From contig NZ_AP022583.1 in the NCBI RefSeq assembly GCF_010731635.1, forward strand, positions 3,224,001-3,288,000: 64,000 nucleotides of DNA, written 5' to 3'. Position 1 is the first letter of the stretch; the number at the start of each line of letters is the position of its first letter. Below, piece after piece: positions 10,990 through 25,759 of the stretch. Below the pieces are notes generated by a model. It made no database searches and was not told the origin of the DNA. It saw only the letters and a list, made by a program, of their open reading frames with translations. Source of the DNA: Mycobacterium noviomagense (GTDB lineage: Bacteria > Actinomycetota > Actinomycetes > Mycobacteriales > Mycobacteriaceae). Made by a program: the position numbers and the translations under genes.

Positions 10990-11018
10990 TTCAGCTACTT
11001 AAGTATTAATCAACTGAA
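10990..11018. promoter_or_regulatory. 29-bp dyad A, putative MarR operator (tspO / fni)
   Basis: Arms TTCAGCTACTTAA and TTAATCAACTGAA flank a 3-base centre GTA. It stands between the divergent tspO and fni genes. The arm length, spacing and TTCAnnnnnTTAA pattern match the dyads at 14198-14226 and 25686-25714, which also lie at promoters of the carotenoid island. This AT-rich element stands out in very GC-rich DNA. Confidence 0.7.
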
Positions 11019-11123
11019 TGACCTCCGGGGATGTGGAGATGTCGCACCCCGAAAGGCAGCGATTGTGATTAGCCGTCGCGTCGGTGGCAATACCACGTCA
11101 ACAGGCTTCACCGAAAGAGCACC

Positions 11124-12242
11124 ATGCACCGAGCACCAGCAACCCGACGGCGGCCCGCTGCCGCGACAAAACCGGATGCCATGACGTTTGACGAGTCCGC
11201 ACTGCCCACCCGGAAGCGACGCCATATCGACGTGTGCCTCGGTGACGACGTTTCCTACCGTGGTGTCACGACCGGGCTGGAGCGCTATCAGCTGCCCTAC
11301 AATGCGCTGACCCAGACCAGCCTGGCGCAGGTCGATTTGTCCACCGACTTTCTCGGTGCGCGGTTACGGGCCCCGGTACTGATCGGCGCAATGACCGGCG
11401 GCTCCGATCTGTCGGCCACGATCAACCGCAACCTGGCCGCAGCAGCGCAGCGGCTCGGAATCGGCATGATGCTCGGGTCGCAGCGGATCATGCTCGACAA
11501 CGCACTCGGTGAGCAGGCCGCAGCCAGTTTCACCGTCCGCGATCTGGCACCGGATATCTTGCTGATCGGCAATATCGGCTTAGCGCAACTGACGAAGTGC
11601 GCGGTGCCGGATATCGAGAAGGCGCTCGACCGCGTTGGCGCCGATGCACTTGCCGTGCATACGAATCCGTTGCAGGAGGCGGTCCAGTACAACGGCGACA
11701 CCAATTTCTCGGGATCACTCGAGAGGTTGCGCGACGTCGCCGCCGACCTCCGATTTCCGATGCTACTCAAGGAAGTTGGGCATGGGATAGGCGCCGATGC
11801 GGTGGCCCAGTTGCTGGGTCCTGCCGGGGAGCCGGCGGTGGCGGCCATCGATGTCGCCGGTGCGGGAGGCACATCATGGTCGCGGGTCGAGCAGTTCGTC
11901 CGCTACGGCGAGATCCGCTACCCCGACCTGGCCGAATGGGGTATCCCGACTGCACGCGCGATCGTGGAGGTGCGTCAAGCGCTGCCGGCTATCCCCCTTG
12001 TTGCCTCCGGCGGCATCCGCACCGGTATGGATGCTGCCAAGGCGCTCGCGTTGGGCGCAGACGTGGTGGCGGTTGCCCGGCCACTTCTTGCCCCGGCGAT
12101 TGAATCTGCCGCTGCCGCAACGACTTGGTTGCATCGCTTCATCGACGAGCTTCGGATCTGCCTGCACGGCTGCGGCGCGCCGGATCTGCATGGCTTGCGC
12201 GATGTCGGTGTGACGTTGGCGCCGTCGCCACAAGCCGGGTGA
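11124..12242 (+). CDS. fni: Type 2 isopentenyl-diphosphate delta-isomerase (FMN dependent)
   Basis: Interconverts IPP and DMAPP, balancing the precursors for GGPP. The 372-residue product has the TIM-barrel FMN-enzyme signatures [59 protein letters not shown] and [26 protein letters not shown], the last binding the FMN phosphate. ATG at 11124 has a fair ribosome binding site (GAAAGAG); an ATG at 11181 would give 353 residues and starts nearer to the conserved part. It is four bases from the glycosyltransferase gene and lies behind dyad A, so it is probably under the MarR regulator. Confidence 0.93.
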
Positions 12243-12245
12243 TCG

Positions 12246-13499
12246 ATGGCAGTAATCCTGGCATACAGCTCACCGTCAGTCGGCCATCTCTTTCCGCTCA
12301 ACGCGCTGCTGTGCGAACTCGCGCAGCGGTGCCACCAAGTCCACGTGTACACGATGGCTGACGAGGTGCGCAGGATTCGGCAAGGCGGACTGCACGCCGA
12401 GCCCGTCGATCCGCAGATCGAAGCTGTCGTCGCCCGCGACTGGCTGGCGCACAGCGCTCTTGGCGTGTTGAAAATGTCGATCGACGTGCTTTGCCGGCGT
12501 GCGGTGTTGGAAGTCGAGGATCTGCGTACTGCGATCGATCGGGTGCGGCCCGACGCGGTGATCGTCGACGCGAACTGCTGGGGCGCCATGTCCGTCGCGG
12601 AGGCAGCCGGCATCCCCTGGTTGGTGTTTTCACCGTTCACCCCTTATCTGCGGTCTCCGGGCGTACCCCCCTTCGGCCCCGGACTGCGCCCACTGCCGGG
12701 AATCATCGGTGCTGCCCGCGACGCGTCGATGCGCCCGTTCGTCAGGCACCTGTTCGACGGACCGATGTTGCCGCGTATCAACGCTGTTCGCGCGGACTTA
12801 GGCTTGGCGGCCGTCAAAACGGTTGACGAATTGATGCGGCGCGCGCCACTGGTGTTGGCTGTCGGTGGGGAACCGTTCGAGTATCCGCACCCTGGCTGGG
12901 GAGACGCGGTGCACCTGATAGGTGCGTGCGCGTTCGAGCCCACGCCGACCAGGGCGCACGACTGGGCCGCCGCCATCGATCGACCCTTGGTACTGGTTAC
13001 CACGTCGTCGATCAAGCAGGCCGATACGGTGCTGGCGGAAACCGCATTGCAAGCACTGGCCGATGACCCGGTCCACGTCGTCGCGACCTTCCCCGCGGGT
13101 GTGCCAGCGCGGCTGTATCCGCCGTCCAATGCGACCGTGTGCCGATTCGTCCCGCACGGCGTGGTGCTCGATCGCGCCTGCTGCGCCATCACTCACGGGG
13201 GGATGGGTGCCACGCTCAAGGCACTGGACCGCGGTGTGCCGGTTTGCGTTGTGCCGTTTGCGCGTGATCAGGCGGAGGTTGCGCGCCGGGTGCAAGTGGC
13301 TCGGTGCGGTACCCGGCTGCCGGCGAAGAAGCTCACCGCGTCTCGGCTACGCACAGCGGTTTACGAGGCGATGACGATGCGCGACGGCGCACGGCGGGTG
13401 GCAGCCGGTTTACACGCCACCGGAGGTGTCGCTCGCGGAGCCCACTTGATCGAGCACCGCCTACTCGGCTCGACCACGCGAACGGCGGCTGCCGAATAG
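12246..13499 (+). CDS. UGT/MGT-type glycosyltransferase, CrtX-like
   Basis: 417 residues with a GT-B fold of the GT1 family. The N-terminal domain begins with LAYSSPSVGHLFPLNALLCELAQR (the HxxP acceptor loop), and the C-terminal nucleotide-sugar motif is FVPHGVVLDRACCAITHGGMGATLKALDRGVPVCVVPFARDQ, with the conserved HGG and the final D/Q. This is the architecture of zeaxanthin and macrolide glucosyltransferases. Co-transcription with fni and the nearby crt operon suggest a hydroxylated carotenoid or other isoprenoid as acceptor; that is inference. The converging marR gene ends five bases away. Confidence 0.85.
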   Translation: MAVILAYSSPSVGHLFPLNALLCELAQRCHQVHVYTMADEVRRIRQGGLHAEPVDPQIEAVVARDWLAHSALGVLKMSIDVLCRRAVLEVEDLRTAIDRVRPDAVIVDANCWGAMSVAEAAGIPWLVFSPFTPYLRSPGVPPFGPGLRPLPGIIGAARDASMRPFVRHLFDGPMLPRINAVRADLGLAAVKTVDELMRRAPLVLAVGGEPFEYPHPGWGDAVHLIGACAFEPTPTRAHDWAAAIDRPLVLVTTSSIKQADTVLAETALQALADDPVHVVATFPAGVPARLYPPSNATVCRFVPHGVVLDRACCAITHGGMGATLKALDRGVPVCVVPFARDQAEVARRVQVARCGTRLPAKKLTASRLRTAVYEAMTMRDGARRVAAGLHATGGVARGAHLIEHRLLGSTTRTAAAE

Positions 13500-13504
13500 G
13501 GCCG

Positions 13505-14068
13505 TCACCGCGTGATCTTGCGACCTCTGTTGGCTTTTGGAGCGGCCCGCTGCGCGGTTGACGATCCGCGACGCTCTGCATGCAGTTCGTCTTCAAACGT
13601 CGACATCGCGGTGATCATCGCCATGAACACACGGTGCGCGGCAATCAGATCCCTGTTCGGCAACTCGGCGAGCTCGGCGCGCAGATGGGCGCCGAGCGGG
13701 CTGAAAAACTCGTGCGCCAACGCCATACCGCTGTTTTCGTAGCGAAGCAGCGACTTTCGCCGGTCCGCGGGGTCAGGTTCGCGTCGGATGTGACCCGCCT
13801 CGATCATGCGGTCGACGAGGTAGGTAATCGCCGCAGGGGTCACGTTCATGCGTTCACGCAGTTGTGCCAACGTCAAGGGTTTTCCCGCTGTTTCGGCGAC
13901 CATGATGTGCAGTAACGCATGGAAGTCGCCGCCGCTTACCTCGTGTTGACGCGCGAAGTGCCGGCCTATGCGATCGGACTGCGCGGTGATCGCCCGCATA
14001 TCGGCCGACATCAGCTTCTCCAGCTCAGCTCGGCCCGGCGGTGGATTGTTAGTCCCGCGCTTGGTCAC
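13505..14068 (-). CDS. MarR family transcriptional regulator
   Basis: About 187 residues. The winged-helix region is visible as GGDFHALLHIMVAETAGKPLTLAQLRERMNVTPAAITYLVDRMIEAGHIRREPDPADRRKSLLRY, with the wing motif DPADRRKS. A basic C-terminal tail follows. It is expected to be a dimeric repressor responding to a small ligand or oxidant. I chose GTG at 14068 (VTKRGTNN); an in-frame GTG at 14149 would add 27 residues without similarity. It lies downstream of dyad B and is flanked by carotenoid genes, so it is the best candidate for binding the three dyads of this island, including its own promoter. Confidence 0.88.
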   Translation of the reverse strand: MTKRGTNNPPPGRAELEKLMSADMRAITAQSDRIGRHFARQHEVSGGDFHALLHIMVAETAGKPLTLAQLRERMNVTPAAITYLVDRMIEAGHIRREPDPADRRKSLLRYENSGMALAHEFFSPLGAHLRAELAELPNRDLIAAHRVFMAMITAMSTFEDELHAERRGSSTAQRAAPKANRGRKITR

Positions 14069-14192
14069 CTCACCGCATCCTTTTCCGCCGATACGCCGAA
14101 CAGCGTATCGGAATCCCCTGGACGACCAGCGCAGCCAGTAATTCCACACAGCATGTCGTGTCGCGATGCCATGGCGTACCTTCGCCCCGCAT

Positions 14193-14220
14193 TTGACACC
14201 ACAATCTTAACTATTAAGCT
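14193..14220 (+). promoter_or_regulatory. Sigma-A-like promoter overlapped by dyad B
   Basis: TTGACA (14193-14198), a 16-base spacer and TAAGCT (14215-14220) form a good plus-strand promoter for the gene pair leading to the photolyase. The putative MarR dyad begins at the last base of the -35 box and covers the -10, so binding there should block RNA polymerase. Confidence 0.6.
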
Positions 14221-14226
14221 ATTGAA
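14198..14226. promoter_or_regulatory. 29-bp dyad B, putative MarR operator (marR / photolyase operon)
   Basis: Read on the minus strand, arm TTCAATAGCTTAA, centre TAG and a second, weaker arm TTAAGATTGTGGT. The first arm and TTAA of the second match dyads A and C. It lies between marR (minus) and the operon leading to phr (plus), the position expected for autoregulation. Confidence 0.6.
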
Positions 14227-14291
14227 ATACATCACTCGGTGCGTATCGCAGCGCTCAATGGGGCGCGGAAGCTGCCCATGAAGGACCAACA

Positions 14292-14765
14292 CTGACACAG
14301 CACGAAGACGGTTCAGCTCGCGGCGGTGCGCGCGGGCGTCCCGACGGCGCGGACGACGCCGCGGTCCGTGCCGCGGGCAAGGTGACGGAGGCGTTGGAGA
14401 CAACCGAGCGGGCCCGCGGGCACCTCTACTCCTTTCATCAACTCACCGGCCGTGCCGACCTGCTGCTCGACGACGCCGTGCAGCTGCTGCGCGAGGCGGG
14501 CCACCCGCGGGCGGCCGAGCACATCTGCGAAGAATTGATCGGCCGCAACGTGCTTCCAGGCAGGTGGAGTTTCCAGGTCGTCGAAGACTACGACGACGCC
14601 TACTACCGGTGCTTTCGGGACATGGAAAGGCTGGTGCGGCAACAACTTACGGCTGGCCGGCGCCACGTCTTCGAAGCAGAGCTCAAAGAGCAGCGGCGCA
14701 TGCACGGCCCCCGGGCACACCGCGCCGCCCCGCCCGAGTCGGTCCCCGACCCAACAGAGGAGTGA
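14292..14765 (+). CDS. Conserved hypothetical protein, probably helical
   Basis: I do not recognise a functional family. The conserved part (VTEALETTERARGHLYSFHQLTGRADLLLDDAVQLLREAG... ending RRHVFEAELKEQRR) looks like a helical bundle with many charged residues; related proteins occur in other actinobacteria, to my memory. No membrane segment or signal peptide. The start is uncertain: GTG at 14382 gives 127 residues, while the frame stays open upstream to a CTG at 14292 behind AAGGA, adding a glycine-rich, charged segment. The stop is four bases before the SDR gene, so both belong to the operon behind dyad B. Confidence 0.6.
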   Translation: MTQHEDGSARGGARGRPDGADDAAVRAAGKVTEALETTERARGHLYSFHQLTGRADLLLDDAVQLLREAGHPRAAEHICEELIGRNVLPGRWSFQVVEDYDDAYYRCFRDMERLVRQQLTAGRRHVFEAELKEQRRMHGPRAHRAAPPESVPDPTEE

Positions 14766-14769
14766 AGCG

Positions 14770-16242
14770 ATGCGCTGCGTGATATTAGGGGCCACCGGCT
14801 ACCTCGGCACCCGCCTGGTTCCCGAACTGCTGGCGGCCGGACACGAGGTGCGGGTCATGGCCCGCCAGCCGGCAAAGCTCGAACGCGTGCCGTGGCGCCG
14901 CCGCGTCGAAGTGATCGAAGGCGACGTCACCGACAGCGCTCAGGTACGACGAGCGCTCGATGGCCAACAGGTTCTCTACTATCTGGTGCACTCACTGCTG
15001 CGGCCCGACTTCGTCGACTTCGACGCGCAAGCCGCATCGACCGTCGCCAGCGTCGCCGGTCCAGCCGGACTGTCGCGCATCGTCTATGTGGGCGGCCTGA
15101 TCCCCGACCAGCAGCGGCTGTCGGACCACCTGGCGTCGCGTGCCGAAGTCGGACGGCTGTTGCGGGAATCCGGAGTCCCCACCGTAGAGCTGCGGGCGGC
15201 AGCGATCATCGGCGCAGGGTCGGCGAGCTTCGAGATGTTGCGCTACCTCACCGAACGGCTGCCGCTGATGGTCACTCCGCGGTGGCTGCGCACCAGGGTT
15301 CAGCCGATCGCGGTCCGCGACGTCCTGTACTACCTGAGGGAGGCGGCCGAACTGCCGCCCGAAGTGAACCGGTCCTTCGACATCGGCGGTCCCGACACTT
15401 TCACCTACACCCAGATGATCGGCAAATACGCCGCGATCGCGGGGCTGCAGCGCCGCATCGCGCTTCCAGTACCGGTATTGACGCCGTGGTTGTCCTCGCA
15501 GTGGGTGAACCTGATAACTCCCATCCCGCGCATGCTGGCCGCGTCACTGATGGAGTCGCTGGAAAACGACGTCGTGTGCGCGGACCACGACATCGCCGAA
15601 TACATTCCGGATCCGCCGGGCGGGCTGACCCACTACGAAGAGGCGGTAGAACTCGCATTGGCGTGCGTGCGCGACGGTGAGCTGCACACCCGCTGGTCTC
15701 GGCCCGACGCCGCCGAATCACCATCGCGGCCACTGCCGACCGATCCGCACTGGGCCGGCGGGTCGCTGCACACGCATCTGTGCGAACGCCGCCTCGACGC
15801 CGATCCGGCCACCCTCTGGCATGGCGTCGAATCGATCGGCACCGACCACGGTTGGCCGGCGGCGCCGTTGGCGTGGGCACTGCGAGGGTGGTTTGGCCGA
15901 GTCGCCGGCATGGCCGGGATCAGGTTGGCACGTCGCCATCCGCACCGACTGCATTCCGGTGAGGCGCTGGATTGGTGGCGCGTCGAACACGTCGACCGGC
16001 CACATCTGGTGCGGCTGCGCGCAGACGTCCCGCTGCCAGGTCGGCTATGGCTTGAGCTGTCGGTGGGCGACGACGGCAAGGGCGGAAGCATTTACCGACA
16101 GCGCGCGCTCTTCCAGCCCTACGGCCTTGGCGGCGAAGCGTTCTGGGCGGCGTCAGCACCGTTTCGTGACGTGATCTTCGGCGGTATCGCCCGCGACATC
16201 ACGGCGGCCGGCGCACAGCTGAAAGACCGCGCAGAGGTGTAA
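14770..16242 (+). CDS. SDR/NmrA-like NAD(P)-binding protein with C-terminal DUF2867 domain
   Basis: 490 residues. The N-terminal Rossmann domain starts with VILGATGYLGTRLVPELLAAGHEV (the GxxGxxG dinucleotide motif) and carries YYLVHS and VYVGGL strands, as in atypical SDRs of the NmrA type without a clear YxxxK. The C-terminal half (about 320-485) matches DUF2867, a SRPBCC-like domain that often follows this Rossmann domain. It could reduce or sense a lipid or quinone; the substrate is unknown. A ribosome site GAGGAG lies 6 bases upstream. It is between the small helical protein and the photolyase in one operon. Confidence 0.82.
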   Translation: MRCVILGATGYLGTRLVPELLAAGHEVRVMARQPAKLERVPWRRRVEVIEGDVTDSAQVRRALDGQQVLYYLVHSLLRPDFVDFDAQAASTVASVAGPAGLSRIVYVGGLIPDQQRLSDHLASRAEVGRLLRESGVPTVELRAAAIIGAGSASFEMLRYLTERLPLMVTPRWLRTRVQPIAVRDVLYYLREAAELPPEVNRSFDIGGPDTFTYTQMIGKYAAIAGLQRRIALPVPVLTPWLSSQWVNLITPIPRMLAASLMESLENDVVCADHDIAEYIPDPPGGLTHYEEAVELALACVRDGELHTRWSRPDAAESPSRPLPTDPHWAGGSLHTHLCERRLDADPATLWHGVESIGTDHGWPAAPLAWALRGWFGRVAGMAGIRLARRHPHRLHSGEALDWWRVEHVDRPHLVRLRADVPLPGRLWLELSVGDDGKGGSIYRQRALFQPYGLGGEAFWAASAPFRDVIFGGIARDITAAGAQLKDRAEV

Positions 16243-16272
16243 CGCACCGCGCAGAGGTGTAACGCACCGCGC
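16226..16272 (+). repeat. 20-bp tandem repeat (2.35 copies) spanning a stop codon
   Basis: The unit ACCGCGCAGAGGTGTAACGC occurs at 16226-16245 and 16246-16265, followed by the first seven bases of a third copy. The TAA stop of the SDR-DUF2867 gene is in the first copy, and the second copy repeats it. It looks like a recent slippage duplication in the gap before phr. Confidence 0.85.
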
Positions 16273-16308
16273 TGCAATGCTTCTCGCCTGCGCAGAAAGG
16301 GCACCACT

Positions 16309-17667
16309 ATGGCCGTCACAATGGCATTGTTCACCAGAGACCTGCGCGTCTATGACAATCCGGTTCTCAGTGCCGCCCACCGGGCGGGTGAGCGGATAGC
16401 CCCGGTGTTTGTGCTCGACGAAGCAATACTGTCCAGCAGCTATATGACATCCAACAAGGCCCACTTTTTGGCCGCTGCCCTCGCCGAACTCGACGGCGAG
16501 CTACGCCGCCGTGGCGGACGTCTGATCGTGCGTCGCGGATCGGTGGTGAGCGAAGTCGAGCGCCTTGTGGTGGAACACTCGATCACCGAAGTGCATGTGG
16601 CGTCCGACGTCAGCTCGTATGCTGCGCGCCGTGAACACCGGTTGCGGGAGCGGCTCGCCCGGCACAGATGCAGCCTCGAAGTGCACTCGTCGAGCGTCAC
16701 CTTGTCCGAGCCGGGTGAGCTGACGCCGGCCGGGGGAGATCACTTCTCGGTTTTCACGCCGTACTACCGCAAATGGCTACATGCCGTTACGCGCCGTGTG
16801 CTGCCTGCGCCGTCGAGGCTGAAAGTCGTTGACACGCAAAGCGAGCCGCTTCCGTCCGGAGGGCAACTGTGTACCCACCCGGCATCGCCCAAATTGACTG
16901 TTGGCGGGGAAACCACTGCCAGGCGGCTGGTGAAGACATGGCTCGGGGCCCCGGTCGACGAGTATCACAGATACCACGACGACCTGGGCGCCGACGCCAC
17001 GTCGCGGCTGTCGGCATATCTGCACTTCGGGTGCATCTCGCCGGTCGAGCTTGTCTATCGCAGCCGGTCTTCGACCGAGGGATGCGCGGCGTTCATCCGC
17101 CAAATCGCTTGGCGGGACTTTTATGCCCAGATGCTGGCCGCTCGGCCGGACACCGCTCGCAAAGACTACCGCGGCAATAACGACGGCTGGCAGCACAACC
17201 CCGCCCTGTTCGACGCGTGGTGTCGGGGCCAGACCGGGTATCCCATCGTTGACGCCGGGATGCGCCAACTAGCTGCGGAAGGATGGATGCACAACCGGGC
17301 TCGCCTGATCACTGCAAGCTTTCTGACCAAAACGCTGCGGTTGGATTGGCGCCTTGGCGCGCAACATTTCATGAGCCTGCTTGTCGACGGGGACGTGGCC
17401 AACAACCAACTGAACTGGCAGTGGGTGGCCGGCACCGGCACCGATACCCGTCCCTACCGCGTGCTCAACCCAGTGCGGCAAGCCGAACGCTTCGACGCCA
17501 ACGGCGACTATGTGCGACGTTGGGTTCCCGAACTCGCCCACATCACCACGGCGAAAGTGCACAGGCCGTGGGAACTCGAGCCGAACGCGGCGCCGGACTA
17601 TCCGTCCCGCATTGTCGATCACCGCGCGGCTGTTGCTGCCTCACGCGGCGCCAGCGGCGGGCTTTAG
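16309..17667 (+). CDS. phr: Deoxyribodipyrimidine photolyase
   Basis: Class I CPD photolyase of 452 residues; uses FADH and light to split pyrimidine dimers. The N-terminal antenna domain begins MALFTRDLRVYDNPVLSAA; the C-terminal FAD domain shows QIAWRDFYAQML, PIVDAGMRQL, WMHNRARLITASFL, DGDVANNQLNWQWVAGTG and NPVRQAERFD, all standard FAD and DNA contacts. A GAAAGG ribosome site lies before the ATG. Photolyases often accompany carotenoid genes; the shared promoter region with marR suggests co-induction by light. The stop overlaps that of the convergent DUF2784 gene. Confidence 0.95.
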   Translation: MAVTMALFTRDLRVYDNPVLSAAHRAGERIAPVFVLDEAILSSSYMTSNKAHFLAAALAELDGELRRRGGRLIVRRGSVVSEVERLVVEHSITEVHVASDVSSYAARREHRLRERLARHRCSLEVHSSSVTLSEPGELTPAGGDHFSVFTPYYRKWLHAVTRRVLPAPSRLKVVDTQSEPLPSGGQLCTHPASPKLTVGGETTARRLVKTWLGAPVDEYHRYHDDLGADATSRLSAYLHFGCISPVELVYRSRSSTEGCAAFIRQIAWRDFYAQMLAARPDTARKDYRGNNDGWQHNPALFDAWCRGQTGYPIVDAGMRQLAAEGWMHNRARLITASFLTKTLRLDWRLGAQHFMSLLVDGDVANNQLNWQWVAGTGTDTRPYRVLNPVRQAERFDANGDYVRRWVPELAHITTAKVHRPWELEPNAAPDYPSRIVDHRAAVAASRGASGGL

Positions 17668-18032
17668 CACTTTCGGCGTAAGTGGCTCCAGCCGAATACG
17701 ATCCACGAGACGCCGGCCGCCACGAAGGCGAGCAACTGCGCAATTCCGGTGCGGTTCGCGGGATAGCACACACCGGCGATGTAGCGGTCGACGAAACCGG
17801 ACGCGGGTAAGGGATTCATGCCGGCTCGCGTGCGCGCCGACTGCTCGACCTGGGTGAGCGGACACGGGAAGCCCAAGACGACAACGCCGGCACCCCAGAG
17901 GACGGCCGGTATATGCAGCAGGATGCCGCGCGGCCAACGCAGCGCCAAGAACCCGCCGCTCGGCAGATAGATCAAGTAGGCGAAGTGGACGCCGACGGTG
18001 GCGCCGACCACGACGCAATACAGCTTGTTCAT
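17664..18032 (-). CDS. DUF2784 family membrane protein
   Basis: 122-residue protein with about three hydrophobic segments (YCVVVGATVGVHFAYLIYL, LLHIPAVLWGAGVVVLG, LLAFVAAGVSWIVFGW) and conserved CPLTQVE, matching DUF2784. The function of the family is unknown. It starts 17 bases after the Rieske gene and is the last gene of the carotenoid operon. Co-location may mean a membrane partner for the Rieske protein, for instance in pigment tailoring or electron supply, but nothing in the sequence proves this. Confidence 0.75.
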   Translation of the reverse strand: MNKLYCVVVGATVGVHFAYLIYLPSGGFLALRWPRGILLHIPAVLWGAGVVVLGFPCPLTQVEQSARTRAGMNPLPASGFVDRYIAGVCYPANRTGIAQLLAFVAAGVSWIVFGWSHLRRKC

Positions 18033-18049
18033 CGGTGGTCGCGCCACGG

Positions 18050-19048
18050 CTAGGTTGCACCGGTACGCAGCCGGTAACGCCGCTCGGCATAAGCCAAGTC
18101 GTCGTGCCAGAGCCGGGCGGCGGCACGGCGCATCAGCCACGCGATCAGCGGGCCGGCCCGGCGTGCCTGCCGAAAGCCCTGACGGTCGGAGCGTGCGATC
18201 ACCGCTTCGATCACTGCGGTGCGGGAACGGCCGGTGGCGTCGGAACCGATTGGGGTGGCGTGGGTTTCGACGACACTGCCTGTTCCTTCGCCGTCCACGA
18301 TGCGCATGACGATGGTGCGTGCCTCTGGGCTGGTGAATTCGGCGACGGCCGGTACGCCCAGGCGGCCGATGCGGAACGTCACTGCGACCAGGAACTGGTC
18401 GGCCTCCTCGGTCGGAGTGGTCAGCACCTTCAGCTGGGTGAACGAATACGGGTGGTACCAGGAGCCATGCCATGGATCGAGCCGGTTGGCGATGACGTCT
18501 TGCGGCTCGCAGACACCGACCACCCGTGTGACGGCGTGCAGGACGTCGCCGCTGGGCCTAGCGGGAAGCACCGGCTGCTCCAGCGGCGCCTCGCCGCCCG
18601 CGTCGTCGAGACGCACCCACGACAGCACACCGTCGTCGTAACTCGGTAAGGTCTTCCAGCCGCATCGTTCTGCGTGGGGGTCCAGCGTCAGCCCGTGCCA
18701 GCGGCAGACCAACGCGCCCTCGCGCACTGTCGCGGTGGCCAGATCGGCGCCCAAGTGCGGACAGGCCCCCGGGCCGACATGCAGCCCGTCATCGTCTCCT
18801 CGCCAGGCGACCAGTTCGACGCCGGCGACGCGAGTTCCGAACGGACGGCCGTGGCGCACTTCTCGACTTGCTGCGAACGCATACCAGTTGCCGGTCGGCC
18901 GACTCTGGGATCGGTTCAGCGCGGCGTCGATGATCGCCGGTTGGGCGTCGCCGTATGTCGGGCGCTGCGCGGCCCACTCGGACTTCGGAAGGTGTTGCAC
19001 GGGCCAGTCTTTGGGCCACCGCCGGCGCATGTGACCGCCGATGTTCAT
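18050..19048 (-). CDS. Rieske [2Fe-2S] protein with DUF5914-like C-terminus
   Basis: 332 residues. The Rieske motif is intact: CPHLGADL followed 17 residues later by CRWHGL (C-x-H ... C-x2-H). The C-terminal region has the SRPBCC-like look of Rieske oxygenases (HSGEAL-like features are absent; NRLDPWHGSWYHPYSF occupies the usual iron-site zone with D and H residues). It is coupled to crtU by an ATGA overlap. Similar Rieske genes with DUF5914 sit in other actinobacterial carotenoid clusters. The likely role is oxidation of isorenieratene or an intermediate, which is inference from context; an electron-transfer role is the alternative. Confidence 0.8.
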   Translation of the reverse strand: MNIGGHMRRRWPKDWPVQHLPKSEWAAQRPTYGDAQPAIIDAALNRSQSRPTGNWYAFAASREVRHGRPFGTRVAGVELVAWRGDDDGLHVGPGACPHLGADLATATVREGALVCRWHGLTLDPHAERCGWKTLPSYDDGVLSWVRLDDAGGEAPLEQPVLPARPSGDVLHAVTRVVGVCEPQDVIANRLDPWHGSWYHPYSFTQLKVLTTPTEEADQFLVAVTFRIGRLGVPAVAEFTSPEARTIVMRIVDGEGTGSVVETHATPIGSDATGRSRTAVIEAVIARSDRQGFRQARRAGPLIAWLMRRAAARLWHDDLAYAERRYRLRTGAT

Positions 19049-20568
19049 CAGCTCCACCGCCTTTCCCCAGTGGCCAGCCGGCCCAGCAGCGTCGAACGTC
19101 CCCGGTTGGGAACCGTGCACAGCGGGTGGCCGGCGAGTCCCCATTGCGTCAACAACTGGTTTGCGGCCGACCATCCGGTGGTGGCCGCGCGTTCCATCAG
19201 CGCGACCGGCAGGTCGATGCGGATGCCGTCGCCGGCCAGCACCAGGCCCGGGTGCGGTGTCGTCACGCCCGGCCGGTGAGCATGGGTACCCGGCGCGAAC
19301 AGCGGACAATCGCTTCGGCTCAGCACCTTTCGCCAAACCACCTGTGCGCTCACGGTTTCCGGATAGATCGCGTGCAGCTGCCGCAGCATCTTGTTGTCGG
19401 ACACCGTGGATTGCACGGCGTAGGAGTGCAGCTCCACAACCGAGCCGCGATGTTGTTGTGACCAGCGGGCCGCTTCGCGCTCGTAGCGTTCCAGCACGCT
19501 GATGTTGTCCAGCGGCTCATGGCCGGCGGTCCCCAAGAAGGCAGGCCGCTGCGAAGCGACCGGCCGGTCAAGCCACAGCCGCTGCACCACAAACGGCGGC
19601 GCGGTGCGCAGTCTGCGTATCCGTGCCCGCCACACGTCGTCGCCGAGTTCGGGTGACGCCGCGACGATCTGCTGCAGACCGGACACATCGGTGGCCAGCA
19701 CGACGGCGTCGGCGTCGAGGTATTCCCCGGAATCGGTATACACCCGAAAGCGGTTCTCCTGGCGGCGGCCGACGCTGGTCACCTTGGTGCCCGGGCGAAA
19801 TCCTGCACCCTGCTCTGAGAGGTAGCGCTGGAGCGGCGCCCACAGGGCGGTGTCGAAGTTCGCGTTGGCGACGTCGAAAATCAGGCCCTCGCTGGAGCCG
19901 AGGAAGTAGATATGAAACATCGTCGCCAACTCGGCGGCCGACAATTGACCCGGGTCGGCGAAGAAGCTGCGCGAGAACACCTCGAAGGCCAGATGGCGTG
20001 CCGCGTCAGGAAAGTTGATGGCCTTGAGGAACGTTTCGGCGTCGAGGTGGTCGAGCCGCCGATAGATCTCCGGCACCGACACCGCGGCCAGTGGTGCCGC
20101 CGCCCGTGCGTTGAGCCGGGCCAGATTCCGCAGCCGAAAAGTGGGGCTGCGCAACGCAAATGCGATCGCATTCCAGGGAGGCGTGCGGGGCAGTCCGCGA
20201 AAGCTGTCGCGGCGGCCGGCGCCGTCGATGAGCGGATAATCGTCAACTGCGGTGAGCATGGATAGCTGCGGGTCGATGCGGCGCAGCAGCGCCCGCAAGT
20301 TGTAGTACTGGCGGAAGAAGGCGTGAAATCCGCGGTTCATCGGCCAGTGTGCGCCGTCGTGCTGCTCGGTCCAGCCGCCGACCCGTCCGCCGAGGTAGTG
20401 CTCGCGTTCGACGATGTCCACCTGGATTCCGCGTTCGGCGAGCCCGGTAGCGGCGGCCAGCCCAGCGATGCCGGCGCCGACCACGACAGCGCGTGGCCGG
20501 GCCGGCAGCGCGTCAGCACTGGTCAATCCGGGCGGCGCCGGATGAATCTGGCGACGGTGATCGGTCAT
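19048..20568 (-). CDS. crtU: Isorenieratene synthase (beta-carotene desaturase/methyltransferase) CrtU
   Basis: Converts the beta-ionone rings of beta-carotene to aromatic phi rings by desaturation and methyl migration. 506 residues in the CrtI-like FAD superfamily: FAD motif VVVGAGIAGLAAATGLAERG (26-45), then ERE and GGRVGGW. The segment MNRGFHAFFRQYYNLRALLRRID distinguishes CrtU from phytoene desaturase, and the C-terminal FAD motif is GLVLAGDGIRIDLPVALMERAATTGWSAAN. It starts at an ATG overlapping the crtT stop. With crtE, I, B, Yc and Yd it completes a route to isorenieratene (leprotene), a pigment known from several mycobacteria. Confidence 0.9.
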   Translation of the reverse strand: MTDHRRQIHPAPPGLTSADALPARPRAVVVGAGIAGLAAATGLAERGIQVDIVEREHYLGGRVGGWTEQHDGAHWPMNRGFHAFFRQYYNLRALLRRIDPQLSMLTAVDDYPLIDGAGRRDSFRGLPRTPPWNAIAFALRSPTFRLRNLARLNARAAAPLAAVSVPEIYRRLDHLDAETFLKAINFPDAARHLAFEVFSRSFFADPGQLSAAELATMFHIYFLGSSEGLIFDVANANFDTALWAPLQRYLSEQGAGFRPGTKVTSVGRRQENRFRVYTDSGEYLDADAVVLATDVSGLQQIVAASPELGDDVWRARIRRLRTAPPFVVQRLWLDRPVASQRPAFLGTAGHEPLDNISVLERYEREAARWSQQHRGSVVELHSYAVQSTVSDNKMLRQLHAIYPETVSAQVVWRKVLSRSDCPLFAPGTHAHRPGVTTPHPGLVLAGDGIRIDLPVALMERAATTGWSAANQLLTQWGLAGHPLCTVPNRGRSTLLGRLATGERRWS

Positions 20569-21287
20569 TGCGCATACCCGAGGAAAGTGTGCACGATGTT
20601 GGTTTCCCAGCCGGGCATCGTTTCGCTGTGCACCGCGGTGAAGCCCGCGTCAATTAGCCTGTCGCGGAACCGAGATGCGCCATCGAAGCCCAAAACGCTG
20701 CGCCATAGATAGCGGTACAGCGCCGTGTGGCGGGTACGCCACCAGCCGGCGGGGATGATGATGCCCCAGCACACCGCATGCCATACCCACGTAGCGCGCT
20801 GGGAGTCACGCACCGAGTACTCGTGGACCGCCAAGGTGCCGCCAGCTCGCAGCAGCGTGCGGAAGGCCCGAAGTTGACTATCCGGGTCGGCCAGGTTGCG
20901 CACGAGGTATGCCGCGAAAATCGCGTCGAACGGTCCAGTGATGCCGTGTTCGGCAAGTTCTTCGACCGGCGCGTGCACGAAGCGCACGGACGGCGGCCAC
21001 TGTTTCGCCCGCGCCGCGTCGAGCATGCCTTGTGACGCGTCGACCGCGACAATGTCGGCGTGCGGGGCGACGGTCAGCAGTGCTTCCGTCGATGCCCCGG
21101 TGCCGCATCCGGCGTCGAGGAGCCGTAGCCCTCGGCCGCGGTCGGGCAGCCGCAACCGTCGTGCTGAAAGGCGAAGGTGAGCATGGTATTCGGGATTGGC
21201 GTCGACGAGCCGGTCGTAGGCTGCGGCGCCCGCGTCGAACGCGGCCGGCACGTCGGCGGGGGAAAGGCGGGTGTTACCGGCGCGCAC
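20565..21287 (-). CDS. crtT: SAM-dependent methyltransferase CrtT
   Basis: 240 residues. Motif I LLDAGCGTGASTEALL, then VAVDASQGMLDAAR and FDAIFAAYLVRNLADPDSQLRAF mark a UbiE/COQ5-like methyltransferase. A gene of this type, crtT, stands between the cyclase and crtU genes in Streptomyces isorenieratene clusters; its exact substrate is unsettled. GTG at 21287 overlaps the crtYd end by 14 bases and has GGGAG seven bases upstream. Four-base overlap with crtU follows. The context supports pigment biosynthesis strongly, the precise reaction weakly. Confidence 0.82.
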   Translation of the reverse strand: MRAGNTRLSPADVPAAFDAGAAAYDRLVDANPEYHAHLRLSARRLRLPDRGRGLRLLDAGCGTGASTEALLTVAPHADIVAVDASQGMLDAARAKQWPPSVRFVHAPVEELAEHGITGPFDAIFAAYLVRNLADPDSQLRAFRTLLRAGGTLAVHEYSVRDSQRATWVWHAVCWGIIIPAGWWRTRHTALYRYLWRSVLGFDGASRFRDRLIDAGFTAVHSETMPGWETNIVHTFLGYAQ

Positions 21288-21579
21288 GTTGACGCTCCCA
21301 GAGCAGCAGCACGGCGGTGACGAGGGCGAAGCCGAACAGGAAATCTTCGATCGGGATGTCGAACGGGAATCGCAGGCTGGTGATGTGGCGGTCGTCGTAC
21401 ATGACGATCGGAGCACGAAGTTTGGTCAACCATCCGTCGACCAGGATCTGAAATCCAAAGACGATCAGCATCGACAACCAGTAGGCGCTGCGGCGGAAGA
21501 TTCCGGTGTGCAGCACGGCGAATTCGAGCGTGCACACGGCGAGCACCGCGAGGACGGCGGGCGCGGTATAGCCGATCAT
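21274..21579 (-). CDS. crtYd: Lycopene cyclase, second small subunit (CrtYd)
   Basis: 101-residue membrane protein with three hydrophobic helices and the motif FDIPIEDFLFGFALVTAVLLLWE. It is one half of the heterodimeric lycopene beta-cyclase of actinobacteria; the PxE(E/D) motif is shared with CrtYc and with the fused cyclases of fungi and archaea. ATGA overlap with crtYc implies stoichiometric translation. A QILVDGWLT segment precedes the motif, as in other CrtYd proteins. It should form beta-carotene from lycopene at the membrane together with CrtYc. Confidence 0.88.
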   Translation of the reverse strand: MIGYTAPAVLAVLAVCTLEFAVLHTGIFRRSAYWLSMLIVFGFQILVDGWLTKLRAPIVMYDDRHITSLRFPFDIPIEDFLFGFALVTAVLLLWERQRARR

Positions 21580-21896
21580 CGCCGGTTGACCCGGTCCAGG
21601 ATGGCGCTTACCGCGTTGTAGGTCAGCAGCGCGCACAGCGGAATGACGATGAAGAACAGCACCTCCTCGATCGGCACATGCACGGGGACGAAGGCGCCGA
21701 GGACGTACGTGGGATTGTACGTCCACACGTGCGCGGCCACTGCCGCCTCGTCCCACAGTAAAAACACTGCGGCGACGGGTAGCACCGCGCGGGCGACCCG
21801 ACCTGGTTGGCGGTACACGCCGGGGCCGAACAGCTCCAGCGGCGCCGTGATCGCCAGACATGCGGCAAGGACGAGTAGGTATTGCCACCGATCCAT
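21576..21896 (-). CDS. crtYc: Lycopene cyclase, first small subunit (CrtYc)
   Basis: 106 residues, three predicted helices: WQYLLVLAACLAITAPLELF, AVLPVAAVFLLWDEAAVA and the motif VHVPIEEVLFFIVIPLCALLTYNAV. The PIEEVLFF motif is the hallmark of this cyclase superfamily. It works with CrtYd as a heterodimer. It is coupled by ATGA overlaps with both crtB upstream and crtYd downstream. The same two-gene arrangement is known from Mycobacterium aurum and Brevibacterium. Confidence 0.88.
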   Translation of the reverse strand: MDRWQYLLVLAACLAITAPLELFGPGVYRQPGRVARAVLPVAAVFLLWDEAAVAAHVWTYNPTYVLGAFVPVHVPIEEVLFFIVIPLCALLTYNAVSAILDRVNRR

Positions 21897-22852: not shown

Positions 22853-24369
22853 CGCAGCGCGGCTTTCGTGATGACGCGTCGCGTCGAGTGTCCGACCGTG
22901 CCGGTGATGCGGTCGGCGGCCAGGCGCCCGGAGATCAAGGCGGTTGGCACACCAACGCCGGGGACCGTGGAGGACCCGGCCAGCACCGCATTGTCGACGC
23001 CCCGCACGACATTGGCCGGCCGGAACGGCCCGGTCTGGGAGAACGTGTGGGACAACGCAAACGGTGTTCCGGCGGCCATACCTTGACGCGCCCAATCAGC
23101 GGGGGTGACGGCGTGCAGCACATGCGCGCCGTCACACAGGCCGGGAAGCAGCCGGTCTTCCACGAGGTTGACGACGTATTGGGCGTACTCCTCACCGATG
23201 CTGGACCAGTCGATGTTGGAGTGGGTGAGATTTGGCGCCGGTGCCAGGACGTAGAACAGATCGTGACCGGCCGGAGCCAGGCTCGAGTCGCTGGCGGTGG
23301 GCCTGGTGACTAGCAGCGACGGGTCCTGCATCAGTCGACCGTCACGGACGATGTCATCGAATGTCTGCTCCCACGCGTCGCCGAACACGATGCTGTGATG
23401 CGCCGCTTCCGAATGCCTGCGCGGACAGCCCACGTGGACGACGACCGCCGACGGCGCGGGCCGCAGGTTTCCCAGGCGGCGCGGCCGATGGCCTAGCAGT
23501 GCATATGTTTGGGGCAGCTCAGTGGTCAGAACGACTGCATCGCAGTCGATCTCATGGCCCCGGTCAGTGCGGACGGCCACGACGCGGCAGTCGGTGCGTT
23601 CGAGTTCGGTGACCGTGGCACCGTAGTGGAATCGCACCCCGGCGTCGGTGGCCGCGGCGGCCAAGGCATCCGGTAGGGCCCGCATCCCGCCGCGCGGAAA
23701 GAAAACCCCGGCAACGGTATCCATGTAGGCGATGACCGCGTAGACCGCAAGAGCATGCTGCGGCGCGACACCGGCGTAGAGCGACTGGAAGGTGAACACC
23801 CGCCGCAACCGCGCATCGCTGATGTAACGCTTGACCATGGTGTCCCACTTGCGGAATCCGCCGATTGCGGCCAGCCGCGCCAGCTGCGGGGTAAGCAGCG
23901 AAAGGGGCGAGTCGAAGTTTCGGGCGATGAATCCGTCGAATTCGGTGCGGTACAGCCGGATCAGCCAGTCTCGCAGCCGGCGGTAGCCCGCTGCCTGCGT
24001 GCCGTCAGCGAATTCCGTTATGGCCGCGGCCATGTGCTCGGGATCGCTGTGCACGTCGAGGCTGCTGCCGTCGGCGAACACCGCACGGTAGGCCGGATCG
24101 AGCGGGAGCAGCTCTAGTCGCGCCGAGATGTCTTCGCCGACGGCGCCGAATGTGTCGTCGATGAGGTCGGGCATCGTCAGCACCGTGGGTCCGGTGTCGA
24201 GCCGATAGCCGTCAACATCGAGCCGGCCCGCGCGGCCCCCGGGCCAGGATTCGCGCTCGACCACGGTGACTTCACGACCGCGACCGGCGAGGTGCAGCGC
24301 GGCCGAAAGCCCCGCAAATCCCGCGCCGATCACGACCACCCGATCGCTGCGTCCGGCGACGGTGCGCAT
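22849..24369 (-). CDS. crtI: Phytoene desaturase CrtI
   Basis: FAD-dependent four-step desaturase that turns phytoene into lycopene. 506 residues. FAD-binding VVVIGAGFAGLSAALHLAGRG (11-31), ERESWPGGRAG, YRLDTGPTVLTMPDL, FQSLYAGVAPQHALAVYAVIAYMD and the C-terminal GSSTVPGVGVPTALISGRLAADRI are characteristic. It acts at the membrane. It lies 28 bases after crtE and is coupled to crtB. Confidence 0.95.
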   Translation of the reverse strand: MRTVAGRSDRVVVIGAGFAGLSAALHLAGRGREVTVVERESWPGGRAGRLDVDGYRLDTGPTVLTMPDLIDDTFGAVGEDISARLELLPLDPAYRAVFADGSSLDVHSDPEHMAAAITEFADGTQAAGYRRLRDWLIRLYRTEFDGFIARNFDSPLSLLTPQLARLAAIGGFRKWDTMVKRYISDARLRRVFTFQSLYAGVAPQHALAVYAVIAYMDTVAGVFFPRGGMRALPDALAAAATDAGVRFHYGATVTELERTDCRVVAVRTDRGHEIDCDAVVLTTELPQTYALLGHRPRRLGNLRPAPSAVVVHVGCPRRHSEAAHHSIVFGDAWEQTFDDIVRDGRLMQDPSLLVTRPTASDSSLAPAGHDLFYVLAPAPNLTHSNIDWSSIGEEYAQYVVNLVEDRLLPGLCDGAHVLHAVTPADWARQGMAAGTPFALSHTFSQTGPFRPANVVRGVDNAVLAGSSTVPGVGVPTALISGRLAADRITGTVGHSTRRVITKAALR

Positions 24370-24397
24370 CAGCGAGCGGCTTTCGGCCGCGAACGGC

Positions 24398-25654
24398 TCA
24401 TTGGCTGCGCTCCGTGCACTCGACGGCCATGTTGTCCAGGGCGTGGTGAACCGATTCGTCGATGTCCATGTCGCCCAGTTCTTTTCGGGCGGATTCCACC
24501 CGGCTCGTGATCATCTCCTCGACCCATTGCACCGCACCCGTCGCCACGATCAATGCCCGCCAGTGGTCGAGCGCGCTGTCGTCGATGTCGTCGCTGTTCA
24601 TCAGTTCGGTGAGTTGACGACGGGTCGGTGCGTCGGCCAGTTGGTGTGCGGCCATCACAACGCTGGTCGGCTTGCGTTCGATGAGATCGCCACCGCTTGG
24701 CTTGCCTGTCGTTGACGTCAACCCGAAGACGCCAAGCACGTCGTCGCGCAACTGAAAGGCTTCACCCACCGCTGCGCCGTATCGGCCAAGCGCTGACATC
24801 GTGCGATCACCGCAGCCGGCCATTGCGGCGCCGATCTCCAACGGCCGCCGCACCGTGTAGTTGCCCGACTTGCGTCGCGCGACATCCAGGACGGCGTGCA
24901 TGGTCGGCAAATCCCTGGCGTCGCTCGCCAAGTCGGCGAACTGGCCGAGCGCCAGCTCGGTGCGCATGGCGTCGTAGCGCGGCCAAGCCTGCTGCAGGCG
25001 GCGTGGCGCCACGCCGCTCTCGCGCAGCATCTGTTCCGCCCAGATCAGGCACAGGTCGCCAAGCAGAATTGCCGCCGATTCGCCGAACCGCTTCGACGAT
25101 CCGGATAACCCGCTGTCGCGGTGCCACCCGCTGAACTGGATGTGCGCCGCGGGACGGCCTCTCCGCGTCGCCGATGCATCCATGACATCGTCTTGCAGCA
25201 GCGCGAACGCGTGCAGCAGTTCGAGACTGGCAGCGGCGCGCAGCGCCGGGTCGCTGCCGAACCTTCCGGCCAACCACCCCAGGTACATGAACGTGGAGCG
25301 CAGGCACTTGCCACCGGACACGAACTGGGTCAGTATGTCGCCCGCCACGTCGACGCCTGCCTCGTCCAGCTCCACGCACCGCTCAGCGACGAAATCGGCA
25401 ACGTGGGTCAGCACGGCTTGGCGCACGCCGTTTCGCCACGCGCCGAAGCTGCCCGGGTCCGGCCAGCATCGTTCCGTCAGCGCTGCCGGCATGCGTTCCC
25501 GTGCAGGCGACAATTCGTAAACCTCGCCCACCGGCGCCCCTCTCCTCGGTTTGGACTGCTGCCGGCCCGAACGGCTCGAAGTCACGCTGAGTACCCCGCG
25601 GTTGCGACGCCAAACACACTGGTCCTGTGTCGAGACGCCAGGTCGGCGAGGCAC
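24398..25654 (-). CDS. crtE: Geranylgeranyl diphosphate synthase CrtE (IdsB type)
   Basis: Trans-prenyltransferase supplying GGPP to CrtB. FARM motif LLHAFALLQDDVMD and second aspartate motif LRDDVLGVFG are both visible; the second reads DDxxG, common in actinobacterial members. GGKCLRSTFMYLGWL provides the diphosphate-binding GK...R. The start is uncertain: GTG at 25654 gives 418 residues; GTG at 25585 (395) or ATG at 25492 (365, behind GGGAA) are closer to usual length. It is the first gene of the pigment operon, directly downstream of dyad C. Confidence 0.9.
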   Translation of the reverse strand: MPRRPGVSTQDQCVWRRNRGVLSVTSSRSGRQQSKPRRGAPVGEVYELSPARERMPAALTERCWPDPGSFGAWRNGVRQAVLTHVADFVAERCVELDEAGVDVAGDILTQFVSGGKCLRSTFMYLGWLAGRFGSDPALRAAASLELLHAFALLQDDVMDASATRRGRPAAHIQFSGWHRDSGLSGSSKRFGESAAILLGDLCLIWAEQMLRESGVAPRRLQQAWPRYDAMRTELALGQFADLASDARDLPTMHAVLDVARRKSGNYTVRRPLEIGAAMAGCGDRTMSALGRYGAAVGEAFQLRDDVLGVFGLTSTTGKPSGGDLIERKPTSVVMAAHQLADAPTRRQLTELMNSDDIDDSALDHWRALIVATGAVQWVEEMITSRVESARKELGDMDIDESVHHALDNMAVECTERSQ

Positions 25655-25685
25655 GGCAGTGCGGTAGCTCCGACAGCAATACTCG

Positions 25686-25714
25686 TTCAGTAGTTTAACC
25701 TTTAACTTACTGAA
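25686..25714. promoter_or_regulatory. 29-bp dyad C, putative MarR operator (crt operon / TIGR03085 gene)
   Basis: Arms TTCAGTAGTTTAA and TTAACTTACTGAA with centre CCT; the arms differ from perfect dyad symmetry at only two positions. This is the best of the three copies. It sits 32 bases before the longest crtE frame, and on the other side 46 bases before a -10 for the plus-strand gene. Confidence 0.75.
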
Positions 25715-25759
25715 AGATACTAGCTGTGGCTAGTGGGCGCAGCCAACTCGCGATTCACC

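What the first reader, a model, noticed from the sequence alone, without database searches (positions are those of the whole stretch)
10990..25714. Three matching 29-bp dyads define a MarR regulon for the whole carotenoid island
Arms TTCAGCTACTTAA/TTAATCAACTGAA (10990), minus-strand TTCAATAGCTTAA/TTAAGATTGTGGT (14226-14198) and TTCAGTAGTTTAA/TTAACTTACTGAA (25686) share the pattern TTCAnnnnnTTAA-N3-TTAA, equal arm length and equal spacing. They sit at three divergent promoters: tspO/fni, marR/photolyase operon, and crt operon/TIGR03085 gene. One MarR gene is inside the block. The simplest reading is one repressor switching pigment, precursor supply, DNA repair and TspO together.
Basis: partly seen in the sequence, partly recalled or inferred. 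Interest (0 to 1): 0.8.

Follow-up and report, generated by a model that had tools for sequence, protein, structure and literature searches.

The report
Repressor sites uniting pigment and photolyase
Three matching DNA sites in a mycobacterial pigment island look like the switch points of one repressor that holds down carotenoid pigment, its precursor supply, DNA photo-repair and TspO together, and similar sites recur in many relatives, including before genes already known to be turned on by light in one of them.

Summary
The three 29-bp dyads are real and are the only matches at <=2 mismatches in the 4.78-Mb genome. The MarR gene among them is, by sequence and position, an orthologue of CrtR, the repressor behind light-induced pigment in Mycobacterium kansasii. 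In 396 genomes of the genus the dyad occurs in 220 of 265 with this MarR and in 1 of 131 without. A site is present at 75 of 75 crtE promoters in MarR-bearing loci and at 0 of 15 in MarR-less genomes. Sites recur before crtE, fni, MmpL-tspO-photolyase, hyp158 and a second MarR. In six of eight M. kansasii relatives a site lies directly before mmpL2-tspO-phrB, a locus reported as light-induced with CrtR's role unknown. Where the full dyad has decayed, one 13-bp arm survives in 29 of 30 promoters, so the dyad is probably two operators, one per divergent promoter. The regulator class is known; I found no report of this operator, of photolyase/TspO control through it, or of the double-operator anatomy. 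Nothing was tested at the bench.

The parts
10990..11018 (.). dyad 1, double operator between tspO (-) and fni (+)
   Evidence: 16/16 fixed bases; same position in relatives
14198..14226 (.). dyad 2, between crtR (-) and hyp158-DUF2867-photolyase (+); right arm 8/8, left (crtR-side) arm 6/8
   Evidence: recurring site before hyp158 or DUF2867 in relatives
25686..25714 (.). dyad 3, upstream of the crtE operon (-); TIGR03085 gene on the other side
   Evidence: site at 75 of 75 crtE promoters in MarR-bearing loci
13505..14068 (-). crtR, MarR-family repressor, 187 aa, start GTG 14068
   Evidence: Pfam MarR_2; start by shared Shine-Dalgarno; alignment A1
10468..10947 (-). tspO
   Evidence: PF03073 E 3e-32
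11124..12242 (+). fni, type-2 isopentenyl diphosphate isomerase-like
   Evidence: PF01070; position as fni beside crtR in M. kansasii; the enzyme name is inferred
12246..13499 (+). glycosyltransferase, MGT-like, behind fni
   Evidence: beside fni in many fetched relatives
14292..14765 (+). hyp158, conserved small protein (start uncertain)
14770..16242 (+). NAD(P)-binding/DUF2867 protein
   Evidence: PF11066, PF13460
16309..17667 (+). DNA photolyase of a type rare in the genus
   Evidence: PF03441, PF00875; relatives of 65-67% identity in 3 of 197 other genomes at E <= 1e-110
17664..18083 (-). DUF2784 protein, end of crt operon (start uncertain; the scan used the longer ORF to 18473)
18050..19336 (-). 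Rieske/DUF5914 protein
19048..20568 (-). FAD amine-oxidase family enzyme, called crtU here
   Evidence: the name crtU is recalled
20565..21416 (-). UbiE-type methyltransferase
21274..21888 (-). lycopene cyclase (crtYc/Yd-like)
   Evidence: PF18916
21896..23095 (-). crtB phytoene synthase (start uncertain)
   Evidence: PF00494
22849..24369 (-). crtI phytoene desaturase
   Evidence: PF01593; assignment by order and family
24398..25654 (-). crtE polyprenyl synthase (start uncertain)
   Evidence: PF00348
25733..26395 (+). TIGR03085 gene; probably a bystander at dyad 3
   Evidence: TIGR03085; beside the site in 4 distinct fetched loci

Best explanation
The dyads are operators of CrtR, the MarR protein encoded at 13505-14068. 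With no inducing signal CrtR sits on them and blocks divergent promoters: tspO and fni-glycosyltransferase; crtR itself and hyp158-DUF2867-photolyase; and the crtE operon. An inducing signal, probably light acting through an unknown metabolite, releases CrtR so that pigment, its C5 precursor balance, photo-repair and TspO rise together. Each 29-bp dyad is probably two 13-bp palindromic arms, each binding one CrtR dimer and facing one promoter. Shown here: the sites, their recurrence, their absence where the regulator is absent, clustering of promoter-like hexamers beside them at some promoters, and survival of single arms. Shown by others in M. kansasii: a crtR mutant de-represses crtE, mmpL1 and fni; and crt genes, crtR, fni, phrB, tspO and mmpL2 are light-induced. 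Inferred: binding, repression in this organism, the light signal, dimer count.
For: Unique sites. Both 220, dyad only 1, MarR only 45, neither 130 of 396 genomes (tables). Reversed-pattern control 16 matches against 393. crtE promoters with a site >=5 bits: 75/75 with the MarR, 0/15 without (Fisher 2e-17, kinship ignored). Control neighbour gene GT4: 0 of 13 promoters. Of 79 named loci 77 hold a site. A matrix trained without the window and without M. kansasii relatives finds sites there before mmpL2-tspO-phrB (6 of 8 loci) and crtE, and before fni in some, matching published light induction and crtR de-repression (PMC9861118, passages). AITY of the HTH is invariant in the 12 aligned MarR proteins of both paralogues. 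28 of 31 genomes in which only the window-type MarR was found keep a dyad (read off). In G117 the window-type photolyase carries its own dyad about 44 bp upstream. TANNNT hexamers pile up 19-20 bp after the dyad on the mar side (15 and 18 of 75; null maximum at any one offset 5) and 3 bp after it on the MmpL side (12 of 97; null maximum 5). One arm intact in 29 of 30 decayed sites, shuffles 2.5%.
Against: No binding or expression data for this protein or this genome. Co-occurrence counts ignore shared ancestry. Part of the 75 crtE promoters trained the matrix. 45 MarR genomes lack the dyad at <=2 mismatches (30 of their loci examined; 29 keep one arm). fni promoters carry a site in 48 of 90, tspO in 21 of 77 (many lie inside operons), hyp158 in 13 of 26, DUF2867 in 8 of 24 (>=15 bits). 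crtR's own promoter carries one in 5 of 101 window-type genes. Among M. kansasii relatives no fni site reached 5 bits in M. persicum, M. ostraviense or M. gastri. TANNNT clustering was weak or absent at crtE (6 of 74), fni (5 of 47), tspO (2 of 19) and hyp158 (0 of 13), and no clear one stands on the window's fni side (by eye). In C. glutamicum phrB was not light-induced (PMC6739363, passage). 23 of 183 sites had no assigned gene. M. kansasii itself was not among the named loci returned.
Confidence: 0.86

Rival explanations
1. The dyads are operators of another DNA-binding protein, and the MarR merely lives in the same island.
For: The crtE dyad is about 11 kb from crtR; most window-type crtR genes have no site of their own (5 of 101 do).
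Against: The dyad follows this MarR across 396 genomes, also in the 17 fetched loci L105-L121 where the dyad lies beside the MarR paralogue and no crt cluster like the window's was seen. Sites are missing from crtE promoters where the MarR is absent. No other regulator was tested for the same pattern.
Confidence: 0.07
2. CrtR controls the crt and fni promoters, but the photolyase and TspO links are accidents of gene order: those genes only share a divergent promoter region with a true target.
For: Window dyad 2 lies between crtR and the photolyase operon, dyad 1 between tspO and fni; divergent regions always have two sides.
Against: In M. kansasii relatives the site lies before mmpL2-tspO-phrB away from crtR and fni, a locus reported as 27- to 32-fold light-induced. 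In 5 of these 6 sites the arm facing the operon is 8/8. In G117 the window-type photolyase has its own dyad.
Confidence: 0.1
3. The dyads are chance A+T-rich palindromes or promoter spacers without a binding protein.
For: A+T-rich spots are common at promoters (general knowledge; no call).
Against: 0 matches in 100 shuffles of the window; 393 against 16 control matches in 396 genomes; the one control gene examined, GT4, has none in 13 promoters.
Confidence: 0.01

Closest known systems
CrtR of Mycobacterium kansasii / M. marinum (PMC9861118, passages seen; Gao 2003 only as cited there)
   Same: Orthologue by sequence (61-64% to relatives with the order crtE-I-B-Y-mmpL-crtR and convergent fni) and by position; the mutant de-represses crtE, mmpL1, fni; crt and photolyase loci are light-induced.
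   Different: No operator was found described (the terms palindrom, motif and operator do not occur) and control of the other light-induced loci was left open. Here the site is defined and found before the photolyase locus in relatives; in the window the photolyase is another type at another place.
CrtR of Corynebacterium glutamicum (PMC5401885, PMC6739363, PMC7432914, passages seen)
   Same: MarR repressor of a carotenoid operon, autoregulated, TTAA essential for binding, footprint about 52 bp, light-inducible, binding inhibited by GGPP in vitro.
   Different: [quoted passage not shown] the footprint paper could not find inverted repeats; phrB not light-induced. Here several 29-bp double sites and photolyase/TspO/MmpL targets.
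LitR/CarH B12-dependent MerR photoreceptors
   Same: Works like it in outcome: light-dependent control of carotenoid genes (passages).
   Different: Different protein family; the window protein matched only MarR-type and winged-helix models.

Membership tests
CrtR (actinobacterial MarR regulators of carotenogenesis) | MarR-type winged helix | tested here: met
   PF12802 E 1.7e-12, PF01047 E 4.4e-11
CrtR (actinobacterial MarR regulators of carotenogenesis) | encoded near a crt cluster | tested here: met
   crt operon 17.7-25.7 kb, crtR 13.5-14.1 kb
CrtR (actinobacterial MarR regulators of carotenogenesis) | mycobacterial synteny: crtR convergent with fni | tested here: met
   fni-glycosyltransferase (+) runs towards crtR (-) in the window; relatives; M. 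kansasii order
CrtR (actinobacterial MarR regulators of carotenogenesis) | operator at the crtE and own promoters | tested here: met
   dyads 3 and 2; the own-promoter site has 2 mismatches; presence by sequence only, binding not shown
CrtR (actinobacterial MarR regulators of carotenogenesis) | TTAA required in the operator | tested here: inconclusive
   TTAA elements nearly invariant in 81 sites, which were selected by the pattern; requirement needs mutants
CrtR (actinobacterial MarR regulators of carotenogenesis) | DNA binding, and inhibition by GGPP | not testable with these tools
   needs purified protein
CrtR (actinobacterial MarR regulators of carotenogenesis) | light-induced targets | not testable with these tools
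   only literature on M. kansasii
LitR/CarH | MerR-type DNA-binding domain with B12-binding domain | tested here: not met
   only MarR-type and winged-helix matches

The most novel reading that the evidence does not exclude
CrtR and its paralogue run a genus-wide photoprotection regulon through a double operator: two 13-bp dimer sites back to back, each silencing one of two divergent promoters and able to be lost on its own. The old core is a MarR-MmpL transporter pair found beyond the genus; pigment, IPP isomerase, TspO and two unlike photolyase genes were recruited to it by gaining the site. The inducer may then be a light-made product handled by MmpL/TspO, such as a tetrapyrrole derivative, which would point to the missing light signal of photochromogenic mycobacteria.
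Probability: 0.3. Interest if true: 0.78.

Novelty: new variant of a known kind. Interest (0 to 1): 0.6.

Why it matters
Light-induced pigment has served to classify mycobacteria since Runyon (1959, as cited), and the M. kansasii study that characterised CrtR said it was unknown whether CrtR also governs the other light-induced genes. A defined operator gives a testable answer, predicts the regulon in many species, supplies exact DNA for binding and mutation tests, and narrows the search for the signal: the co-regulated MmpL and TspO are candidates for handling it.

Tried and rejected
Rejected: chance palindromes; dyad as a common genomic motif; dyad as a mark of one species. Left open: one dimer per 29-bp dyad against two; single-arm survivors favour two, and the 52-bp C. 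glutamicum footprint (passage) is compatible. TIGR03085 as target: beside the site in 4 distinct fetched loci, which share the crtE region, so not supported. Led nowhere: in 10 loci from other genera of the family and order, 7 had no site of 5 bits or more, 1 had weak ones (5.1 and 6.7) and 2, from one genus, had sites of 21 and 36 bits. NCBIfam gave no model above its cut-off for the MarR. Sequence search of solved structures gave only remote MarR-family proteins. G170, the one genome with a dyad and no MarR found, was not followed up.

Limits: one search listed only part of its matches, so gene contexts come from fetched regions, not from all 393 matches. Contexts used 60 regions chosen by me named loci (the best 80 of 252 candidates), with overlap of genomes between the two sets. 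Both sets were picked by dyad or MarR, so they cannot show how often dyads stand elsewhere. MarR was scored on 7 candidates per genome at E <= 1e-15. Of 131 MarR-negative genomes 80 were searched for crtI (list checked); 19 had it; in 4 of these crtE was not detected in the stretch and they were left out of the 15. Of the 45 MarR-only genomes 43 gave a match and the best 30 loci were scored; a divergent MMPL gene stands beside the MarR in 29 of these 30, and the exception, L332, is also the one without an intact arm. In one search the site threshold was 8 bits.
Full report
Observation. The three dyads are at the stated places. Two match the pattern TTCAN5TTAAN3TTAAN5TGAA perfectly; the middle one has two mismatches in its crtR-side arm. 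No other window position matches at up to 3 mismatches, and none of 100 shuffles gives a match. In the whole genome of 4,779,798 bases there is no other match at up to 2.

Genes. Pfam and NCBIfam confirm TspO, an FMN enzyme in fni's place, a glycosyltransferase, a MarR, a NAD(P)-binding/DUF2867 protein, photolyase, polyprenyl synthase (crtE), phytoene desaturase-like FAD enzyme (crtI), phytoene synthase (crtB), lycopene cyclase, methyltransferase, FAD and Rieske enzymes, DUF2784 and TIGR03085. A Shine-Dalgarno shared with relatives sets the MarR start at 14068.

Two MarR paralogues. Search of 396 genomes of the genus found this MarR (E <= 1e-15) in 265. The listed matches fall into two types: A (window type, about 60-77% identical) and B (about 50-61%). 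In the fetched loci type A mostly lies behind the crt operon, convergent with fni; four loci (L126, L127, L130, L134) have the order crtE-crtI-crtB-crtY-MmpL-marR with convergent fni, the order reported for M. kansasii crtR. Type B commonly lies divergent from an MMPL transporter, with the dyad between them; in some loci it stands divergent from crtE instead. In the alignment of 12 proteins of both types the helix stretch AITY is invariant. The own genome has one match only.

Site and regulator go together. 220 genomes have both, 1 the dyad only, 45 the MarR only, 130 neither (Fisher 5e-64, ignoring kinship). The reversed control pattern gives 16 matches against 393. Of 31 genomes in which only type A was found, 28 have a dyad (read off the tables). 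In 17 fetched loci with type B and no crt cluster like the window's, the dyad lies between MarR and MMPL. The sharpest control: of 80 MarR-negative genomes searched, 19 keep crtI; 15 have a readable crtE promoter and none has a site (best score in the stretches -7.3 bits), while 75 of 75 crtE promoters in MarR-bearing loci score at least 5 bits and 74 at least 15. Some of these 75 helped to train the matrix; the 15 did not. Both sets contain close kin.

Where the sites are. In 79 named loci 77 hold at least one site of 8 bits or more, 183 sites in all: 60 before crtE, 37 before fni, 60 before an MMPL gene, 15 before hyp158 (one site can count for two divergent genes), others before marR, tspO, DUF2867 and photolyase; 23 unassigned. 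One unassigned kind lies just before a 766-aa ORF that matches MMPL at 23% (L093). All three window positions are thus recurring ones for the target genes, but a site at the window-type crtR's own promoter is unusual: 5 of 101.

Link to published light response. PMC9861118 (passages) reports 14 light-induced genes in M. kansasii at four loci: crt genes, mmpL1, crtR, fni; phrB, tspO, mmpL2; two fasciclin genes; a PE gene. A crtR mutant de-represses crtE, mmpL1 and fni. It states that a role of CrtR at the genes beyond carotenoid metabolism is unknown. A matrix from 81 sites, trained without M. kansasii relatives and without the window, was run on the photolyase loci of eight relatives: G245 and G260 (unnamed), M. 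ostraviense, M. persicum, M. simiae, M. innocens, M. gastri, M. attenuatum. In six a site lies directly before mmpL2-tspO-phrB (L253, L254, L256, L257, L258, L260; 15 to 33 bits). In L255 (G260) a 40-bit site lies about 1.5 kb away beside a type B gene. L259 (M. gastri) has none; there only a piece of the MMPL gene and no tspO were seen, and the photolyase match holds a stop. 3 Mb of simulated sequence gave one hit at 8 or more and none at 10. A crtE site was found in six of these relatives' crt loci (G245, M. innocens, M. persicum, M. ostraviense, M. simiae, G260). An fni site was found in G245 (15.6 bits), M. innocens, M. attenuatum and M. simiae, but scored below 5 bits in M. persicum, M. 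ostraviense and M. gastri and in L134, G260. I did not look at the fasciclin and PE genes.

The photolyase was recruited more than once. Many relatives have photolyase type 2 behind tspO. The window lacks it there and has another type (30-44% identical to type 2) behind hyp158-DUF2867, with dyad 2 in front. That type occurs in 3 of 197 other genomes at E <= 1e-110. In G117 it has its own dyad about 44 bp upstream (30 bits); in G005 a 16-bit site lies before DUF2867 in the same region; G209 has the photolyase and crt genes but no MarR found and no site.

Anatomy and mechanism. In 30 loci from genomes with the MarR and no full dyad, 29 keep one arm at 7 or 8 of 8 fixed bases upstream of the MarR, against 2.5% in shuffles. 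In 27 it is scored as the arm on the MMPL side. The divergent MMPL gene is present in 29 of 30; the exception, L332, is also the one without an intact arm. Some surviving arms, such as TTCAGTTTCTGAA, are near-palindromes by themselves. In five of six photolyase-locus sites the arm facing the operon is perfect, and in window dyad 2 the arm facing the photolyase operon is 8/8 while the other is 6/8. This suggests two adjacent one-dimer sites, each for one promoter. The hexamer TANNNT piles up 19-20 bp beyond the dyad on the mar side (15 and 18 of 75) and 3 bp beyond it on the MMPL side (12 of 97), with a null maximum of 5 at any offset; crtE (6 of 74) and fni (5 of 47) barely exceed theirs, tspO and hyp158 do not. 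Where it holds, an arm would cover the -35 region or the spacer: steric repression, an inference. In the window the crt operon and crtR are separated by plus-strand genes, and crtR has its own site.

Signal. Light is reported for M. kansasii and C. glutamicum; GGPP inhibits binding of C. glutamicum CrtR in vitro (passages). For this organism the signal is unknown. Co-regulation of MmpL (in relatives) and TspO is the only local hint.

Literature. The listings (open-licence library) showed no paper on this operator in mycobacteria; passages found by term in PMC7755587, PMC12632256 and PMC10470612 do not describe it. Papers outside the library were not seen.

Verdict. The regulator is a known kind; the operator, its double anatomy and its reach to photolyase and TspO are the new part. 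On checking, the M. kansasii-relative count was mended to six of eight and the own-promoter count to 5 of 101; neither changes the odds.

Noticed in passing
window 25719-25734: A short perfect inverted repeat (ACTAGC-TGTG-GCTAGT) stands next to dyad 3 on the TIGR03085 side; meaning unknown.
   Followed up: no
L086 16555 and 16681; L098 18027 and 18110; L124 6030 and 6154; also L019 and L020: Several relatives carry two dyads about 80-145 bp apart; in L086, L098 and L124 they lie between a MarR gene and crtE, perhaps one per promoter or a looping pair.
   Followed up: no
L293-L302: A divergent MarR-MMPL pair occurs beyond the genus (9 of 10 fetched loci have MMPL beside the MarR), with a clear dyad in the two loci of one genus of the same family.
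   Followed up: partly
L148 9914 (M. gastri): No crt genes were detected in the 20.6 kb around crtR, yet crtR keeps a 26-bit site 44 bp before it.
   Followed up: no
L120, L137-L140, L143: In several species the type B site stands before an MMPL-cytochrome P450 pair instead of MMPL-tspO-photolyase; what it exports or oxidises is unknown.
   Followed up: no
G170: Only genome of 396 with a dyad (<=2 mismatches) and no MarR at E <= 1e-15; one such case is within the rate of the reversed control (16 in 396).
   Followed up: no
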